Source of the DNA: Nocardiopsis trehalosi NBRC 14201
Lineage (GTDB): Bacteria > Actinomycetota > Actinomycetes > Streptosporangiales > Streptosporangiaceae
Direction: 5' to 3'
Assembly: GCF_001552555.1 (NCBI RefSeq)
Contig: NZ_BCRK01000004.1
Span: forward strand, 1-64,000
Length of the DNA: 64,000 nucleotides
The number at the start of each line of letters is the position of its first letter. The first letter of the stretch is position 1. The position numbers were made by a program, and so were the translations under genes. Shown here piece after piece: positions 10,678 through 17,131 of the stretch. The notes under the pieces are model-generated. The model worked only from the letters and a program-made list of their open reading frames with translations, had not been told where the DNA came from and searched no databases.

Positions 10678-11652
10678 GTGCGCCCCATGCTCGCCCGAAC
10701 CTCCGACCACCTGCCCGAAGGCCCCGACTGGGTGTACGAACCCAAGTGGGACGGCTTCCGCGCGCTGGCCGAGACCGGGCACGGCCGGGCGGTGCTCGCC
10801 TCGCGCAGCGGCAAGCGCCTCGACCCGAAGTTCCCCGAGGTCGCCGAGGCACTCGCCGGGGCGCTGCCCGACGACACCCTCCTGGACGGCGAGATCGTCC
10901 GCTGGGGCGGCGCCGACGGCGAGGGCGGCCTCGACTTCGACGCCCTCCAGCGCCGCAACCGCGCATCGACGCGCGCCGCCCGGGGCCTCGCCGCCACCGA
11001 ACCGTGCCACTACATCGCCTTCGACGCGCTCCGGGTGGCCGGCGCCGACCTCGCCCGCCGCTCACTGACGCACCGCCGCGCCCGCCTGAAGGAGCTGTTC
11101 GACGGGGTCGACGACCCCCGGCTGATGCTCGGCTGGCAGACCGCGGACGTGCGGACCGCCCGCGAGTGGTTCGACGGGCTGGCCGCCGTCGGGGTGGAGG
11201 GGCTGGTCGCCAAGGACGCCCGCCGGGCCTACCGGCCCGGCCACCGCGACTGGCTCAAGTACAAGCACCGGGTGACCACCGAGGCCGTCGTGGGCGGGGT
11301 CATCGGCCAGCCCGAGCGGCCGCGCGCGCTCATCCTGGGCCGCCGCGACCCCGAGACCGGCGACCTGCGCATCGCCGGCCGCACCGCCGAACTCCGCGCC
11401 GACCAGCAGGACGCGCTCGCCGGCCTGCTCCGCGCCGCCGACGACGACCACCCGTGGCCCCGCCGGCTCGCCACCGCGTGGGGCGGCGGCGAACCCGTCG
11501 CCTACGTCCGCGTCGAACCCGAACTCGTGGTCGAGGTCGCCCCCGACCCGGCGGTCTCCGCCGGCCGCTGGCGCCACGTCGTCCCCTACATCCGCCCCCG
11601 CTCCGACGTCCACCCCCACGACGTCCCCACCGGCCTGGACCTCGAATTTTGA
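10678..11652 (+). CDS. ATP-dependent DNA ligase, LigD-ligase/LigC type (NHEJ)
   Basis: Protein of 324 aa that seals DNA ends using ATP. The adenylation motif YEPKWDGFRAL places the nucleotidyl-lysine at K23. EGLVAKD (motif IV) and WLKYKH (motif V) follow, then an OB-fold to the end. GTG 10678 is preferred (AGG about 9 nt upstream); GTG 10642 and ATG 10687 are alternatives. Ku and a LigD-type polymerase lie 3-5 kb downstream, so this is one piece of a split NHEJ system. The present C-terminus ends ...GLDLEF at a 24-bp repeat. The second repeat copy continues in the same frame to GLDLEA-stop, suggesting the island replaced the original last codon. Confidence 0.88.
   Translation: MRPMLARTSDHLPEGPDWVYEPKWDGFRALAETGHGRAVLASRSGKRLDPKFPEVAEALAGALPDDTLLDGEIVRWGGADGEGGLDFDALQRRNRASTRAARGLAATEPCHYIAFDALRVAGADLARRSLTHRRARLKELFDGVDDPRLMLGWQTADVRTAREWFDGLAAVGVEGLVAKDARRAYRPGHRDWLKYKHRVTTEAVVGGVIGQPERPRALILGRRDPETGDLRIAGRTAELRADQQDALAGLLRAADDDHPWPRRLATAWGGGEPVAYVRVEPELVVEVAPDPAVSAGRWRHVVPYIRPRSDVHPHDVPTGLDLEF
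11623..11646 (+). repeat. 24-bp direct repeat, left copy (att-like)
   Basis: Begins GTCCCCACCGGCC and ends GGACCTCGAA. It encodes V-P-T-G-L-D-L-E, the last sense codons but one of the ligase. It is identical to 14947-14970. Confidence 0.85.
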
Positions 11653-11683
11653 CTGCGGTGCTGGCACGCAGGCCCTGACTCTC

Positions 11684-11725
11684 CTGGGCATTTTCTGGGC
11701 GCATTGACTGGGCATTCTCTGGGCG
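11684..11725 (+). repeat. Short tandem repeat in the island's left end
   Basis: Two 18-bp units, CTGGGCATTTTCTGGGCG (11684-11701) and CTGGGCATTCTCTGGGCG (11708-11725), differ at one base with a 24-bp period. They lie between the ligase stop and the first island gene. This may be a regulator or recombinase binding array; no function is known. Confidence 0.6.
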
Positions 11726-11743
11726 TCATGGTTGACTGGCCAT

Positions 11744-12655
11744 ATGGTCCTCGATCGACCCCCCGGCTCCGACGACGCACCCTTGTACCCCTCGCTGGCG
11801 TCGTTGCTGCGCAAGGGACTACCCGCTTCTCCGGGAGTGGTGGATCCCGCCCTGCTGTCGCTGCGTGCGGTTCTGGTGCGCGCGGCGGACCCCGCTGACG
11901 CCGCATCACGCACGGCCGCGCTGAACACGGTCCTGCGCGCGCTGCTGGCGCGCTTCGACGATGCCCGTTACGCCGATGCGGCCCGGGCCCTGTTCGGTCT
12001 GCCTCCCGGGAAGGCGGGGACGACCCTCACCCGACGGCGTGAAGCAGCGGCGCTGGCGTGCGGACACGATGTCGACCACTTCCGCAAGCGTGTCGAGCCC
12101 CGGCTCGTCGAACGGCTCGCGTGGATGCTGTGGCAGTACTCCGAACACTTCCGACTGACGCCGATCGTGGCTCCTCGACTCAGCCGCGCCGCGACCGCCA
12201 TGCCGTCCCTGCCCGCCGACGTGTTCGCGTGGGAGCTGACCGACCACGAGGCGCAGCTCTCGCGCGTATGGGCATCCGTCTACGCCTTGCGCGCCGAGTT
12301 GCTGACCCTCGACCGAATGGCCGCGATGAGCGCTGATCGGCAGGAGGTCGCTCGGCAGGCCATCACGGCGGCATGGAGGTACGGCGTCCTCCGTGCCGAC
12401 ATCGCGGACTACCTCGACGCCTATCCGCCCGGCGGCTTCGGCGCGCTCACCGAAGTGACGCCCGAGAGACTGACCGCGCTCGCCGGATGGACACCGGAAC
12501 TCGGCGCCGAAGACATCGACATGCTCACCCGCACCGCCCGGACCCATCGCGACCGCGTAGGCTTCGTCGCCGCCATGCGTACCGAGGTCGCCCTGGGCAA
12601 CGCCTGGTTGGACCCGTGGCTCGATCGACGCACCACCGACAAGGAAGCACCATGA
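11744..12655 (+). CDS. Island protein 1, unknown; helical protein with possible DNA-binding segment
   Basis: Protein of 303 aa with no function I can assign. Residues about 60-125 contain ARFDDARYADAARALFGL, then TLTRRREAAA and HFRKRVEPRLVERLA. This pattern resembles a helical domain I associate, from memory, with many uncharacterised actinobacterial regulatory or conflict-system proteins, with a winged-helix flavour. The rest is predicted alpha-helical and soluble, without signal peptide or membrane segments. ATG 11744 is used; a TTG at 11732 is an alternative and neither has a good Shine-Dalgarno. The stop overlaps the next ATG (ATGA), so it is translationally coupled to the ATPase gene and presumably works with it. 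Confidence 0.7.
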   Translation: MVLDRPPGSDDAPLYPSLASLLRKGLPASPGVVDPALLSLRAVLVRAADPADAASRTAALNTVLRALLARFDDARYADAARALFGLPPGKAGTTLTRRREAAALACGHDVDHFRKRVEPRLVERLAWMLWQYSEHFRLTPIVAPRLSRAATAMPSLPADVFAWELTDHEAQLSRVWASVYALRAELLTLDRMAAMSADRQEVARQAITAAWRYGVLRADIADYLDAYPPGGFGALTEVTPERLTALAGWTPELGAEDIDMLTRTARTHRDRVGFVAAMRTEVALGNAWLDPWLDRRTTDKEAP

Positions 12656-13248
12656 CACAGCCCGACCCGCTCACCGCCGCGATCGAAGCCGCGAGAACCC
12701 AGCCTCCGAGAAGATTCGTCATCACCGGCGGGCCTTCGGCGGGCAAGGACGATGTCATCGCCGAAGTGCTCCAGCACGGGATTCCGTGCATGGAGTCCGA
12801 GCCCGGACGGGCGATCTATCGCAAGCACCGGGAACGCCTCGGCCGCCATCTGCGCGCCGAAGACCGGCGCGAGTACGCCGCAGAGGTCCTCGACGCCTTC
12901 GTGGCCGAGTTCGAAGCCCACAAGCACGGGTTCCGCTTCTATAACCGCGGCATACCGGACAGCTATGGATGGGAGCGGTTCTTCGGCCTGTCGCCGACTC
13001 CCCAACTCGAGGAAGCGAACCGCGTCTACCGCTACGACGCGGTGTTCGTGCTCGACCCTCTCGACACCTTCGAAGATCCCGACGACATCGTCTGGGCCAA
13101 GGAGCGCGAGATCAGGCGGGTACACGAGTTGATCGTGCAGGGCTACTACGACGCCGGGTATGAACCCGTCTTCGTGCCCGCCGAGTCCGCTGAACACCGG
13201 CTCGATTTCATCCTCAACAACGTGCGCATACCAAAACCTCAGAGGTGA
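12652..13248 (+). CDS. Island protein 2: P-loop ATPase/kinase-like protein (AAA_28 / NadR-like)
   Basis: Protein of 198 aa. Walker A is GGPSAGKDD (G26 to K32), with Asp33 where Ser/Thr normally coordinates magnesium. CMESEPGRAIYRKHRE follows, then a conserved FYNRGIPDSYGW segment and FVLDPLDTFEDPDDIVWAKE. The layout resembles small AAA_28/NadR-type nucleotide kinases that phosphorylate small molecules or act as NTPases. The substrate is unknown. It overlaps island protein 1 by 4 nt and ends 4 nt before the synthetase-like gene, so all three form one transcriptional unit. A GKD variant occurs in some nucleotide-kinase-like families, so it need not be inactive. Confidence 0.72.
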   Translation: MTQPDPLTAAIEAARTQPPRRFVITGGPSAGKDDVIAEVLQHGIPCMESEPGRAIYRKHRERLGRHLRAEDRREYAAEVLDAFVAEFEAHKHGFRFYNRGIPDSYGWERFFGLSPTPQLEEANRVYRYDAVFVLDPLDTFEDPDDIVWAKEREIRRVHELIVQGYYDAGYEPVFVPAESAEHRLDFILNNVRIPKPQR

Positions 13249-13252
13249 CGCT

Positions 13253-14701
13253 GTGCCGGCACGCCCCCTGCTGATCTCACCGAACTCCGTACTGGCGAAC
13301 GCGCTGCTGCGCAGCATCGACGTGCTGCGGCCCCGCATCCACGCAATGCGGCCTCGACGCATCGAATTCGTCGTCGGAACCCAGATCAACGGCGCCCCTC
13401 ACCTGGGGACCAACCTGGTCCAGGCGACGGCGTTCCTCCTCGCGAAGGCGGCGCGACGCGAGTTTCCGGTCGAGACGTCGGTGAGGTTCGGGGCGCTCGA
13501 CAACGCGCCCTACGACGTCGTCCTCGATCCCGAAACCCATCACGCCTACCAGATCACGTACTTCCACGCGCTGGGTAAGGCCGGGGTCGACGAACTGATC
13601 GACAGGTACTACCGAGCGTTCTTCGACTCGCTGTCGGAGGCGACCGCGACGGATTACACCCTGGAGACCTATACCGACCAACAGGCGAGTCCGGCGTTCC
13701 GTGCGGAGTTCCTCCGGACCCTGGCGAGAATGGATGAGTTCCGGTGGTGGATGGCACCCTCGCACGGGGTCGTGCACGTCCGCGTCCCCTGTTCCGCATG
13801 CGGTTGGGCGGAGAAGCGCGCGGACCGAACGAGACTCATTCACCTAGACGACGACGGCGCCGCATTCGCGGCCGTCTGCCTCGACCACGGGCCGTACGAG
13901 GTCGACGTCGACCCTGAGAACGACGCCTACATCGATCTGGCCACCTTGTACCGGAACCTCGTCAAGGAGCGTCTGCTCGTACGCGACGGCACCACATTGC
14001 GCGTAATGCTCAAGGGAGGCGACTGGGCCTTCGGGTCGCAGCTCGTCGACGGCGCTCTCGGGGTTCTGGACACCCCGGGCGCACGGATGCCGCTTCGCGT
14101 CTTCACCCCTCAGGTGCTCGCCCCTACGGGCGCCAAGCTCTCGAAATCCCTGCTGCGCGACCGCGGTGACGACTCCTTGCCGGCCGACGTCGAACCGTGG
14201 ATGCTCGATACGACGACGTGGCGAGGTGGTACGCACGACTACGTCGACGCGCTTCTGTGGCTTGTCGGTGAACTGCTCACCGACCCCAAGCACTTCTTCC
14301 GAAGCTTCACCGTCAAGGAATTGGGCCGACTCATGCATTCCCGACCCGCCGACCTCGCACAGCGTCCCCGCGCGCACGAGATGGGGATCTACAAGCGGTA
14401 CTTCGATCTGATCGCCTCGGGCAGGAAGACGACCGAGATCCGCGTCGACGACTCGTCGCGCAAGCGGCTCAAGACCGGTGACCTGTTGCGGTTCACCTGC
14501 CGCGACGAAGAGGTGCTCACGCGCATCACCCGGATCGCGCGGTACGCCGACTTCGAGGAGATGTTCGAGCACGAGCCGGTCTCATCGGTCAATCCGACGG
14601 CCTCGAAGAGCGACCAGTTGCGCAATATCCGGGAGATCTACCCGCCGGAGCGTGAGGCGTTGGGTGTGGTCGCGATCGGGATCGAACTCGTCGGCCCGTA
14701 G
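13253..14701 (+). CDS. Island protein 3: class I aminoacyl-tRNA-synthetase-like catalytic domain fused to an ASCH domain
   Basis: Protein of 482 aa. A class I Rossmann catalytic core (about residues 30-340) has the HIGH-type motif NGAPHLGT (H50) and the KMSKS-type loop AKLSKS (K295-S299). Between them lies a zinc-ribbon-like set, C180-x2-C183 and C209-x2-H212. The GGDWAFGSQLV stretch before KLSKS is reminiscent of class I LysRS/MetRS active sites. Residues from about 376 form an ASCH domain (GIYKRYFDLIASGRKTTEIR), an RNA-binding fold. The usual large anticodon-binding domain is absent. GTG 13253 has AGAGGTGA just upstream. Housekeeping LysRS is unlikely given the fusion and island context; tRNA modification, amino-acid ligation or a tRNA-directed defence role are possible inferences. 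Confidence 0.72.
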   Translation: MPARPLLISPNSVLANALLRSIDVLRPRIHAMRPRRIEFVVGTQINGAPHLGTNLVQATAFLLAKAARREFPVETSVRFGALDNAPYDVVLDPETHHAYQITYFHALGKAGVDELIDRYYRAFFDSLSEATATDYTLETYTDQQASPAFRAEFLRTLARMDEFRWWMAPSHGVVHVRVPCSACGWAEKRADRTRLIHLDDDGAAFAAVCLDHGPYEVDVDPENDAYIDLATLYRNLVKERLLVRDGTTLRVMLKGGDWAFGSQLVDGALGVLDTPGARMPLRVFTPQVLAPTGAKLSKSLLRDRGDDSLPADVEPWMLDTTTWRGGTHDYVDALLWLVGELLTDPKHFFRSFTVKELGRLMHSRPADLAQRPRAHEMGIYKRYFDLIASGRKTTEIRVDDSSRKRLKTGDLLRFTCRDEEVLTRITRIARYADFEEMFEHEPVSSVNPTASKSDQLRNIREIYPPEREALGVVAIGIELVGP

Positions 14702-14814
14702 ACCAAGGCGGCGGCGCGCCCGTGGCGGAGGGCGTCCCGTGCGGCCCACGTCGGAGCGGGTCAACATGATTTAAGGCGTTACCGGACATGGAGTGACTCC
14801 GGCCGGTCAGTCTT

Positions 14815-14849
14815 CCCCTTTCGAGCGAGTCCGGACGTCCGAAAAGGGG
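14815..14849. terminator. Hairpin downstream of the island operon
   Basis: CCCCTTTCG (14815-14823) pairs with CGAAAAGGGG (14840-14849), one bulged A. It is followed by no U-tract. It lies in the 245-bp gene-free right end of the island (14702-14946), where I saw no other gene or recombinase remnant. Confidence 0.45.
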
Positions 14850-14946
14850 TCGGTCATGACCCGAGCCTGCGGGGCGGTCCTCAGCCGGGGCGCGGGACGC
14901 GGATCCCCGCCCCCCGCTGCGCCGCCATCGACCCCGCCCTTCCCGT

Positions 14947-14970
14947 GTCCCCACCGGCCTGGACCTCGAA
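14947..14970 (+). repeat. 24-bp direct repeat, right copy (att-like)
   Basis: Identical to 11623-11646. It is followed by GCGTGA, which in the ligase frame reads Ala-stop, the presumed original end of the ligase gene. Confidence 0.85.
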
Positions 14971-15008
14971 GCGTGAGTGCCGTGGCGGTGGGGCGGGGGT
15001 GTGGGGGG

Positions 15009-16115
15009 TCAGGAGGCGGAGCGGGTGCTGCGGCGGTCGGCGACCGCCTTCTCCAGGTCGGCGCGGGACATCTTGGAGCGGCCGGGGACGTCCAGGTCGG
15101 CGGCGAGGCGGGTCAGCTCCTTCTTGGACAGCCCCGCCGTCTCGGCGGCCGGGGCCGTTCCCTGGGCGGGCGCCTTCGTGGCTCGCTCCCCGCCGGCGGT
15201 GCCCCCGCGCCGGCCGCCGCCGGTCGAGCGGCCGCCCCCTCGCCGGCCGCCGCCGGTCCGGCGGCCGGTCTCGCGGCCGTCGGCCGGGCGGTCCTCCGGG
15301 GTGGCGCGGCCCTTGGTGCGGCCGCCCTTGCCGCCCTTGCCGCCCAGGCTGGCGCGGAGGGCCTCGGTGAGTTCCACGACGTTGGTCCGCTGCCGGGGCG
15401 GGCCCTCGTCGCTGTAGCGCAGCCGCCGGCCGTCGTGCTTGGCCTCGATCAGCTCCTCCAGGCGCCGCTGGTAGTCGTCGGAGTAGTCCTCGGGATGCCA
15501 GTCGTCGGCCATGGCCTCGATGAGCTGCCCGGCCAGGTCGAGTTCGCGGTCGGCCAGGTCGGCCTCGGGGATCACCGGCAGGGTCTCCTCGGGGTCGCGC
15601 ACCTCGTCGGCCCACCACAGGGTGCTCAGGGTCAGCACCCCGTTCTGCGGGCCGATCACCGCCAGGTGCTGGCGCTCGCGCATCACCAGCGTCGCCACCC
15701 CCAGCCGGCCGGTGCGCTCCAGGGCGGCGCACAGCAGCTTGTACGGCTTCGCCGACGCCTTGGCCTCGGGCGCCAGGTAGTAGGTGGAGTCGTACCACAG
15801 CGGTTCGACCGACCCGGCGGGCACGAACGCCGAGATCTCCAGGGTGCGCGACCGGCCCGGGGTGATCGACTCCAGCTCCTCCGGCTCCAGCACCACGTAC
15901 TCGTCGTCGTCCTCGACCTTCGCGCCCTTGACGATCTCCGCCGGGTCGACCTCCTTGCCGGTGCGCTCGTTGACCCGGCGGTAGCGGATGCGGTCCGACG
16001 TGCCCCGCTGGAACTGGTGGAACCGCGTCCCGTGCCGCTCGTTCGCCCCGAACAGCCGCACCGGGACGCTCACCAGACCGAACGACAGGGTCCCCTTCCA
16101 CACCGGCGTCGCCAT
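15009..16115 (-). CDS. ku: Ku DNA end-binding protein
   Basis: Protein of 368 aa; GAGGAGGT precedes the ATG. The Ku core occupies about residues 1-255 (starts MATPVWKGTLSFGLVSVPVR). A basic Gly/Arg-rich linker with GGGRR repeats (about 260-315) follows, then a SAP-like C-terminal segment (LSKKELTRLAADLDVPGRS). Homodimeric bacterial Ku threads onto double-strand ends and recruits LigD activities. The gene is divergent from the polymerase-domain gene (92 bp apart), and its stop faces the ligase, so the three form one NHEJ locus. The long basic tail is common in actinomycete Ku proteins and may help DNA binding. Confidence 0.93.
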   Translation of the reverse strand: MATPVWKGTLSFGLVSVPVRLFGANERHGTRFHQFQRGTSDRIRYRRVNERTGKEVDPAEIVKGAKVEDDDEYVVLEPEELESITPGRSRTLEISAFVPAGSVEPLWYDSTYYLAPEAKASAKPYKLLCAALERTGRLGVATLVMRERQHLAVIGPQNGVLTLSTLWWADEVRDPEETLPVIPEADLADRELDLAGQLIEAMADDWHPEDYSDDYQRRLEELIEAKHDGRRLRYSDEGPPRQRTNVVELTEALRASLGGKGGKGGRTKGRATPEDRPADGRETGRRTGGGRRGGGRSTGGGRRGGTAGGERATKAPAQGTAPAAETAGLSKKELTRLAADLDVPGRSKMSRADLEKAVADRRSTRSAS

Positions 16116-16207: not shown

Positions 16208-17131
16208 ATGGCGACGACCGTGACCGAGGAGCGGCTGCGCGCCGGGAACCGCACGGTGCCCGTCCGCCGCCCCGACAAGGAGTTGTTCGGACCCGGCGGC
16301 GTCACCAAGTACGAACTCGCCGCCCACTACGCCCGGGTCGCCCCGGCCATGCTGCGCCACCTGCGCGGCCGCCCGCTCGCCGTGCAGCGGTTCCCCGAGG
16401 GCATCGACGCCGAGGGGCAGGGCTTCTACGTCAAGCGCCGCCCGACCCACGCGCCCGCCTGGGTGCACTCCGTCGTGGTGACGCGCGGCGGCTCCGGCGC
16501 CACCACCGACATGCTCGTCTGCGACGACGCCGCCACCCTGGTCTGGCTCGCCGACCAGGCCGCCATCACCCTGCACCCCTGGCTCAGCAAGGTCCCCGAG
16601 CTGCGCCGCCCGGACCGGATCATCCTCGACCTCGACCCCGCCGGCGACGACTTCGACGCGGCCCGGCGCGCCGCCCGCGACGTGCGCGAGGTCCTCGACG
16701 GCCTCGGCCTGGCGGCGTTCGTCATGACGACCGGCTCGCGCGGGCTGCACGTCGTCTCCCCGATCCGCCCCGAACTCGACACCGACCAGGCCCGCGACCT
16801 CGCCCACGTCGTCGCCGAGATCACCGCCGACCGCCGCCCGGACGACCTCACCACCCACATCCGCAAGAACCGGCGGCGCGGCCGGCTGTTCATCGACTAC
16901 CTGCGCAACAGCTACGCCCAGCTCGCCGTCGCCCCCTACTCGGTGCGCGCGCTGCCCGGCGCCCCGGTCGCCACCCCGCTGTCGTGGGACGAACTGGACG
17001 GCCTGGACTCGGCCCGCGCCTTCACCGTGCGCACCCTGGGCGCGCGCGCCGACGACGACCCCTGGCGGTCGATGGCCCGGCACGCGCGCTCGCCCCGGCG
17101 GGCGGTCGAACGCCTCTCCGCCCGGGGCTGA
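16208..17131 (+). CDS. LigD-type NHEJ polymerase/primase domain protein
   Basis: Protein of 307 aa, a stand-alone LigD polymerase (AEP/PrimPol) domain. The catalytic metal-binding motif is ILDLDPAGDDF. TTGSRGLHVVSPI matches the conserved S/T-G-S-x-G-L-H nucleotide-binding motif, and the RPDKELFGPGGVTKYELA N-terminus is typical. It adds (ribo)nucleotides and fills gaps at ends held by Ku. In many bacteria this domain is fused to ligase and nuclease domains; here ligase and polymerase are separate genes and no phosphoesterase domain is visible in the window. Confidence 0.9.
   Translation: MATTVTEERLRAGNRTVPVRRPDKELFGPGGVTKYELAAHYARVAPAMLRHLRGRPLAVQRFPEGIDAEGQGFYVKRRPTHAPAWVHSVVVTRGGSGATTDMLVCDDAATLVWLADQAAITLHPWLSKVPELRRPDRIILDLDPAGDDFDAARRAARDVREVLDGLGLAAFVMTTGSRGLHVVSPIRPELDTDQARDLAHVVAEITADRRPDDLTTHIRKNRRRGRLFIDYLRNSYAQLAVAPYSVRALPGAPVATPLSWDELDGLDSARAFTVRTLGARADDDPWRSMARHARSPRRAVERLSARG

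What the first reader, a model, noticed from the sequence alone, without database searches (positions are those of the whole stretch)
11623..14970. Three-gene island inserted at the 3' end of an NHEJ ligase gene, bounded by a 24-bp direct repeat
Identical 24-bp copies at 11623-11646 and 14947-14970 flank a segment of visibly lower GC. Collapsing them restores a ligase stop 32 bp from the Ku stop, the compact layout expected of an intact locus. No recombinase is present, so how it moves is unknown. The ligase keeps its frame with only the final codon changed, a hallmark of elements that target gene 3' ends.
Basis: partly seen in the sequence, partly recalled or inferred. Interest (0 to 1): 0.85.

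Follow-up and report, generated by a model that had tools for sequence, protein, structure and literature searches.

The report
Three-gene mobile cassette beside NHEJ ligase
A conserved three-gene unit that travels between plasmids, phages, transposons and chromosomes of actinobacteria has landed behind a DNA-repair ligase gene, copying 24 bases of that gene's end, and it carries a tRNA-synthetase-like enzyme of unknown, possibly antiviral, purpose but no visible machinery for moving itself.

Summary
Two exact 24-bp copies (11623-11646, 14947-14970) bound a 3,324-bp, lower-GC insert; the 24-mer has no other exact copy in the 6.38-Mb genome. Ligase relatives lack the insert; in 17 of 18 with a neighbouring Ku gene the two lie back to back. 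The insert is one three-gene operon: p1 (no known family), p2 (AAA_28 NTPase), p3 (class I tRNA-synthetase-like plus ASCH), with a cassette-specific operator TGGGC-N6-TGGGC. The operon recurs patchily across Actinomycetes, on plasmids and in two Tn3-family transposons; a split p3 occurs in two Streptomyces phages. Six of 48 copies have long direct repeats at both ends (0 of 382 controls); each time the repeat is the 3' end of one flanking gene whose fuller copy faces the cassette. But repeat length (24 to about 870 bp) and cassette ends differ between copies, so this does not look like one integrase-defined element. Best reading: a mobile, probably conflict-related cargo operon without its own recombinase, inserted by an event that duplicated the target gene's 3' end. 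Insertion mechanism and function remain inferred. I found no description of it in PADLOC or the paper library.

The parts
10678..11652 (+). LigD-type NHEJ ATP-dependent DNA ligase, host target gene; last codon altered by the insertion (A to F)
   Evidence: Pfam DNA_ligase_A_M 9.8e-33; NCBIfam NHEJ ligase models; 3' end compared with relatives
11623..11646 (+). left copy of the 24-bp direct repeat (ligase codons VPTGLDLE)
11647..14970 (+). inserted segment plus one repeat copy (3,324 bp)
   Evidence: empty site in ligase relatives; lower GC
11684..11700 (+). operator-like motif copy 1, CTGGGCATTTTCTGGGC
   Evidence: TGGGC-N6-TGGGC near the p1 start in 47 of 54 cassettes; only two sites in the whole genome
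11708..11724 (+). operator-like motif copy 2, CTGGGCATTCTCTGGGC
11744..12655 (+). p1: about 303-aa all-helical protein, invariant HFRKR motif, no known family
   Evidence: ORF; no family hit; conservation, start codon; helical model, no significant PDB match
12652..13248 (+). p2: P-loop NTPase/kinase-like, AAA_28
   Evidence: Pfam AAA_28 8e-25; alignment A2, 85% mean column identity
13253..14701 (+). p3: class I aminoacyl-tRNA-synthetase-like domain (QINGAPHLGT and KLSKS motifs, conserved Cys/His site) fused to a C-terminal ASCH domain
   Evidence: ASCH 2.9e-11; PHROG 'tRNA synthetase' 1.1e-120; distant homologue hits tRNA-synt_1f at 2.5e-5, below its cut-off; alignments
14702..14946 (.). non-coding tail of the insert, not shared with other copies
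14947..14970 (+). right copy of the 24-bp repeat (displaced ligase 3' fragment)
14971..14976 (+). original ligase ending GCG TGA, now detached
15009..16115 (-). Ku, convergent neighbour
   Evidence: NCBIfam Ku_bact 3.1e-87
16208..17131 (+). LigD-type primase-polymerase
   Evidence: Pfam LigD_Prim-Pol 3.5e-86

Best explanation
The segment is a compact, horizontally mobile operon of three genes that travel together (p1 regulator or partner, p2 P-loop NTPase, p3 synthetase-like/ASCH), controlled by a cassette-specific operator just upstream of p1. It has no recombinase of its own and spreads by riding on different vehicles (Tn3 transposons, plasmids, prophage-like elements). When it lands alone, as here, insertion is by a non-site-specific event that duplicates the 3' end of the target gene, so that the intact gene faces the cassette and a 3' fragment is left on the other side. 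Selection keeps the insertions that spare the target gene. The likely benefit is defence or conflict: a conditionally expressed NTP-dependent system acting on tRNA or other RNA. Shown: insertion, recurrence, linkage of the three genes, operator motif, vehicles, recurrent 3'-end duplication. Inferred: the insertion mechanism and the function.
For: Empty sites in relatives. p3 matched in 89 of 343 family genomes, many of them only fragments or distant relatives; 39 loci across Actinomycetes genera; plasmids; Streptomyces phages Mojorita/Picard, as separate synthetase and ASCH genes next to a serine integrase. All 12 family genomes with substantial p1 also have p3 at the same place. Operator motif in 47 of 54 cassettes and only at this cassette in the genome. 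Flanking direct repeats in 6 of 48 cassettes against 0 of 382 control windows; all six are 3' ends of flanking genes: ligase, GntR-UTRA (249 bp, 99.6%), ArsR-like (114 bp, 98%), WYL-type (56 bp, 93%), DUF397 (113 bp, 89%), HPPD (502 bp at 99.2% within a block of about 870 bp with an internal deletion). Cassette boundaries are not shared between copies. Tn3-family cargo in two genomes.
Against: No defence activity was shown; PADLOC has no model for the three proteins and neighbours give only scattered defence hits. No same-genus genome is held, so the exact empty ligase site was not seen in a close relative. 42 of 48 copies show no flanking repeat, so the duplication is not universal. In this copy the 14 bp after the left repeat agree with those after the right one at 9 of 14 positions, which would fit an att-like sequence brought in by the element. 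p3 did not match class I LysRS confidently.
Confidence: 0.55

Rival explanations
1. CIME-like relic: the cassette is what remains of an integrative element whose tyrosine or serine recombinase used the ligase 3' end as attB; the 24-bp copies are attL and attR, and the integrase is lost or acts in trans.
For: 24-bp repeat at a gene 3' end that keeps the reading frame; partial similarity beyond the repeat (38 bp at 87%); one copy (Lentzea nigeriaca) lies beside a XerC/XerD-like recombinase and the phage version beside a serine integrase.
Against: Repeats of other copies are long and variable (56 to about 870 bp) and lie in unrelated genes; cassette ends are not conserved. The Lentzea recombinase has no close relative beside other cassettes; among 139 neighbour genes only 2 matched Phage_integrase and 3 Resolvase. 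No other insertion of this cassette at a ligase 3' end was found.
Confidence: 0.22
2. Campbell-type entry: a circle holding the cassette and a fragment of the host gene recombined by host homologous recombination, giving one full gene plus a 3' fragment. Once flanked by repeats, the cassette can leave and re-enter the same gene in related cells.
For: Topology is intact gene, cassette, 3' fragment in all six cases; long repeats of 98-99% identity in three of them.
Against: Needs a circle that already carries a near-identical gene fragment of the same species; 24 bp in this copy is short for RecA-type recombination (general knowledge).
Confidence: 0.2
3. The operon is not defensive but a resistance or metabolic cargo, for example a spare or inhibitor-insensitive synthetase-like enzyme or an amino-acid-activating biosynthetic enzyme.
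For: Distant homologues on Pantoea and Macrococcoides plasmids lie in biosynthesis-like clusters with ATP-grasp proteins and transporters; synthetase motifs are conserved.
Against: Fusion or pairing with ASCH, constant p1/p2 partners, presence in phages and on plasmids with defence-type neighbours fit a conflict role better; this is a judgement, not a test.
Confidence: 0.25

Closest known systems
Cis-mobilizable elements / integrase-less genomic islands in gene 3' ends
   Same: Cargo genes between direct repeats at a gene 3' end that stays intact; no recombinase inside.
   Different: Repeat length and element ends vary from copy to copy; different genes are hit; no partner element at the same site was found.
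Tn3-family transposons carrying passenger genes
   Same: In two genomes the same cassette is cargo of a Tn3-family transposon (L083/L084 with about 97-bp inverted repeats; L134 with a 63-bp inverted repeat at 84%).
   Different: The window copy has no terminal inverted repeats, no 5-bp target duplication and no transposase.
Class I lysyl-tRNA synthetase family (PF01921)
   Same: HIGH-like (PHLGT) and KMSKS-like (KLSKS) motifs and a conserved Cys/His site; a distant homologue scores 23.8 bits against a cut-off of 27.
   Different: p3 itself is not hit by PF01921; profile comparison is weak (14% probability, E 0.0019); an ASCH domain is fused at the C-terminus.
Streptomyces phages Mojorita and Picard gene pair 'tRNA synthetase' + 'RNA binding protein'
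   Same: Same two domains, 50.8% identity over p3, as adjacent genes near the serine integrase.
   Different: Split into two genes and without p1 and p2; preceded instead by a HATPase gene and an unknown gene.

Membership tests
Integrase-type genomic island / CIME | direct repeats (attL/attR) at both ends, in a gene 3' end | tested here: met
   24-bp exact repeats, ligase reading frame kept
Integrase-type genomic island / CIME | integrase in the element, or a related integrase-bearing element using the same site | tested here: not met
   No recombinase in the insert; no other copy of the cassette at ligase 3' ends of relatives
Integrase-type genomic island / CIME | same att core and same element ends in different copies | tested here: not met
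   Ends and repeats differ among copies
Tn3-family transposon or its non-autonomous cassette | terminal inverted repeats of about 38 bp or more flanking the cargo | tested here: not met
   No such pair around the window copy; found for L083/L084 and L134
Tn3-family transposon or its non-autonomous cassette | 5-bp target duplication | tested here: not met
   Repeat here is 24 bp; crossed 5-bp pairs GATTC/GCAAC seen in L083/L084
Class I aminoacyl-tRNA synthetase (LysRS-I like) | HIGH and KMSKS signature motifs in order | tested here: met
   PHLGT and KLSKS invariant within the cassette family, similar in distant homologues
Class I aminoacyl-tRNA synthetase (LysRS-I like) | match to the family profile above cut-off | tested here: not met
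   p3 not hit; homologue L159 23.8 bits against 27; no PDB synthetase found with profile A4
Class I aminoacyl-tRNA synthetase (LysRS-I like) | aminoacylation of a tRNA | not testable with these tools
   needs biochemistry; the p3 structure model was of low confidence
ASCH domain proteins (PF04266) | profile match over the full domain | tested here: met
   E 2.9e-11, residues 377-480, profile 1-102 of 103; PDB relatives 2z0t, 1s04
Known anti-phage defence systems (PADLOC) | match of p1-p3 to a defence model | tested here: not met
   0 families at E up to 1

The most novel reading that the evidence does not exclude
A recurrent, recombinase-free way of inserting a small operon that duplicates 24 to about 870 bp of the target gene's 3' end, used by an undescribed tRNA- or RNA-directed antiviral system (p1, p2, synthetase-like/ASCH p3) under a dedicated operator.
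Probability: 0.2. Interest if true: 0.85.

Novelty: new variant of a known kind. Interest (0 to 1): 0.6.

Why it matters
Small cargo operons without recombinases are common in genomes, and how they move is mostly unknown. Here one operon can be followed through transposons, plasmids, phages and bare chromosomal sites, with readable scars (3'-end duplications), so the question of how a recombinase-less cassette inserts becomes testable. The cargo joins a synthetase-like enzyme to an ASCH domain with two constant partners and is a candidate for an uncharacterised conflict system.

Tried and rejected
Common oligomer: rejected. Ancestral content of the locus: rejected, relatives lack it. Ligase 3' end as an integration hotspot: nine further ligase regions, read out to about 20 kb where the contig allowed, show no cassette. 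Tn3 origin of this copy: no inverted repeats. Lentzea recombinase as the family's integrase: no close relative near other cassettes. Origin of the 245-bp tail: only short weak hits among plasmids; the leader gave none. p1 fold: no PDB match at E <= 0.001. p3 model: mean pLDDT 46, not used. Published description: none found in topic searches and two papers read.

Full report
Observation. The window has two exact copies of GTCCCCACCGGCCTGGACCTCGAA at 11623-11646 and 14947-14970. No others occur in the window even with three mismatches, and shuffles give none. The whole genome has no further exact copy and one with three mismatches. The segment between them is lower in GC than its surroundings. 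The repeat is the 3' end of a LigD-type ligase gene (codons VPTGLDLE). On the left the ligase now ends GAA-TTT-TGA; after the right copy the old ending GAA-GCG-TGA is kept, 32 bp before the Ku stop.

Is it an insertion? No second genome of the genus is held. In the family, 299 of 343 genomes have a match to the ligase, though most of these are more distant ligases. Of the 29 closest relatives fetched, 18 have Ku within 1.5 kb of the ligase and none has the cassette between. A walk to the stop codons gives gaps of -9 to 87 bp in 16 of them; one row has 472 bp, and one row (L038, -870) is an artefact of the walk, since its Ku match begins 37 bp after the ligase match. The nearest relatives share a DVP-(G/D)L-E-type ending followed closely by a stop. 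Nine further ligase regions show no cassette either; in one (L190) Ku is 1.25 kb away.

What is inserted. p1 (11744-12655) has no family in Pfam, NCBIfam, PADLOC or PHROGs. It is helical by a fairly confident model (mean pLDDT 84) without a significant PDB match, and carries an invariant HFRKR motif. p2 (12652-13248) is an AAA_28 P-loop NTPase, with 85% mean column identity across genera. p3 (13253-14701) joins a synthetase-like domain, with invariant PHLGT and KLSKS motifs and a conserved Cys/His site, to an ASCH domain. The synthetase assignment rests on these motifs, on a PHROG named tRNA synthetase, on a sub-threshold tRNA-synt_1f hit of a distant homologue and on a weak profile alignment that lines up the HIGH regions. 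It is a likely, not a proven, class I synthetase relative.

Recurrence. A search with p3 matched 89 of 343 family genomes, patchily; many of these matches are fragments or only 26-30% alike. A scan of GTDB genomes gave 39 loci in Lentzea, Amycolatopsis, Kutzneria, Glycomyces, Kribbella, Phytomonospora, Actinomadura and others. Where p3 is full length, p1 and p2 precede it in the same order in nearly all. In a search of 121 family genomes with the p1 profile, all 12 genomes with a substantial hit also have p3 there; a thirteenth (G128) has only a fragment of each. Plasmids carry it, and the Streptomyces phages Mojorita and Picard carry a split p3, in Mojorita next to a serine integrase.

A private operator. 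A motif TGGGC-N6-TGGGC lies near the p1 start in 47 of 54 cassettes, often as a tandem pair 23-24 bp apart or as an inverted pair around the p1 start codon; elsewhere in these loci it is nearly absent. A tighter form of the motif occurs in the window's genome only at 11684-11700 and 11708-11724. Autoregulation by p1 is an inference.

Scars at other copies. I compared the 800 bp on each side of 48 cassettes with 382 control positions in the same loci. Six cassettes and no control reach 40 bits. By hand (hypergeometric) this is about 1.5e-6, though the controls are not independent. The six are: this window (24 bp); Actinorugispora endophytica, 249 bp at 99.6%, the end of a GntR-UTRA gene; G243, 114 bp at 98%, the end of an ArsR-like gene; Actinomadura soli, 56 bp at 93% plus a second piece, a WYL-type regulator whose frame also has an internal stop; Glycomyces paridis, 113 bp at 89%, a DUF397 gene; Phytomonospora endophytica, 502 bp at 99.2% plus a further piece, the 3' part of HPPD and 170 bp beyond it, about 870 bp with an internal deletion. 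The ArsR and WYL names are my reading of the translations. In all six the fuller gene has its 3' end towards the cassette and the other side carries a 3' fragment. In four the gene runs with the operon; in two it runs against it. The operon-to-repeat distances vary widely, and sequences outside the operon are shared only between close pairs. That is not what one recombinase with one attachment site would leave. It fits an event that copies the end of the target gene, by repair of a staggered break, by replication with template switching, or by a single crossover with a circle that carries a gene fragment. I cannot separate these; I put the non-site-specific class first.

Vehicles. In G317 two copies of an 8,097-bp block are 99.99% identical, bounded by inverted repeats of about 97 bp, with a Tn3 transposase and a resolvase; the 5-bp flanks are crossed between the copies (GATTC/GCAAC), as expected of an unresolved cointegrate. 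In Amycolatopsis saalfeldensis the cassette sits with another Tn3 transposase between inverted repeats of 63 bp at 84%. In Lentzea nigeriaca it lies beside a XerC/XerD-like recombinase and Ku/LigD genes. Among 139 neighbour genes of other copies, recombinases are rare and defence-family hits are scattered: mads_2, mads_3, mads_8, capH, AriA, one each.

Function. The best guess is a conditionally expressed conflict system acting on RNA, because of the synthetase-like/ASCH pairing, the NTPase partner, the private operator and the presence on phages and plasmids. This is inference; PADLOC has no such model. An alternative is resistance or small-molecule chemistry, suggested by distant homologues in biosynthesis-like clusters.

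Verdict. A real insertion of a widespread mobile operon, apparently undescribed in the library searched. The variable 3'-end duplications are the unusual part. Interest 0.6.

Noticed in passing
L100, L101, L103-L108 (genomes G130, G170, G172, G010, G158, G132, G267, G144): Isolated 3' ends of p3 (the ASCH part, 80-91% identical to the window's) sit in unrelated places without p1, p2 or the synthetase part; frames are open to the original stop. dN/dS is mostly 0.05-0.3, but 0.6 for one sister pair, so function or slow decay are both possible.
   Followed up: partly
L083:3225-11321 and L084:3319-11415: Two identical 8.1-kb Tn3-family transposons carrying the cassette, 153 kb apart with crossed 5-bp target duplications, as in an unresolved cointegrate.
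   Followed up: partly
L133:4381-9471: In Lentzea nigeriaca the cassette lies next to a XerC/XerD-like recombinase and a Ku/LigD cluster: a second association with NHEJ genes, of unknown meaning.
   Followed up: partly
L155:6936-7849 and L157:5185-5667: In phage Mojorita the split p3 genes are preceded by a HATPase-domain gene and an unknown gene; on a Streptomyces koelreuteriae plasmid they are preceded by a Pycsar-effector-like membrane protein.
   Followed up: no
L081:13341-14186 and L087:8991-9332: Second, partial p3 copies a few kb downstream of a full cassette in G243 and G290.
   Followed up: no
L190:2415-3662: In G256 the ligase and Ku are 1.25 kb apart instead of adjacent; what lies between was not identified.
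   Followed up: no
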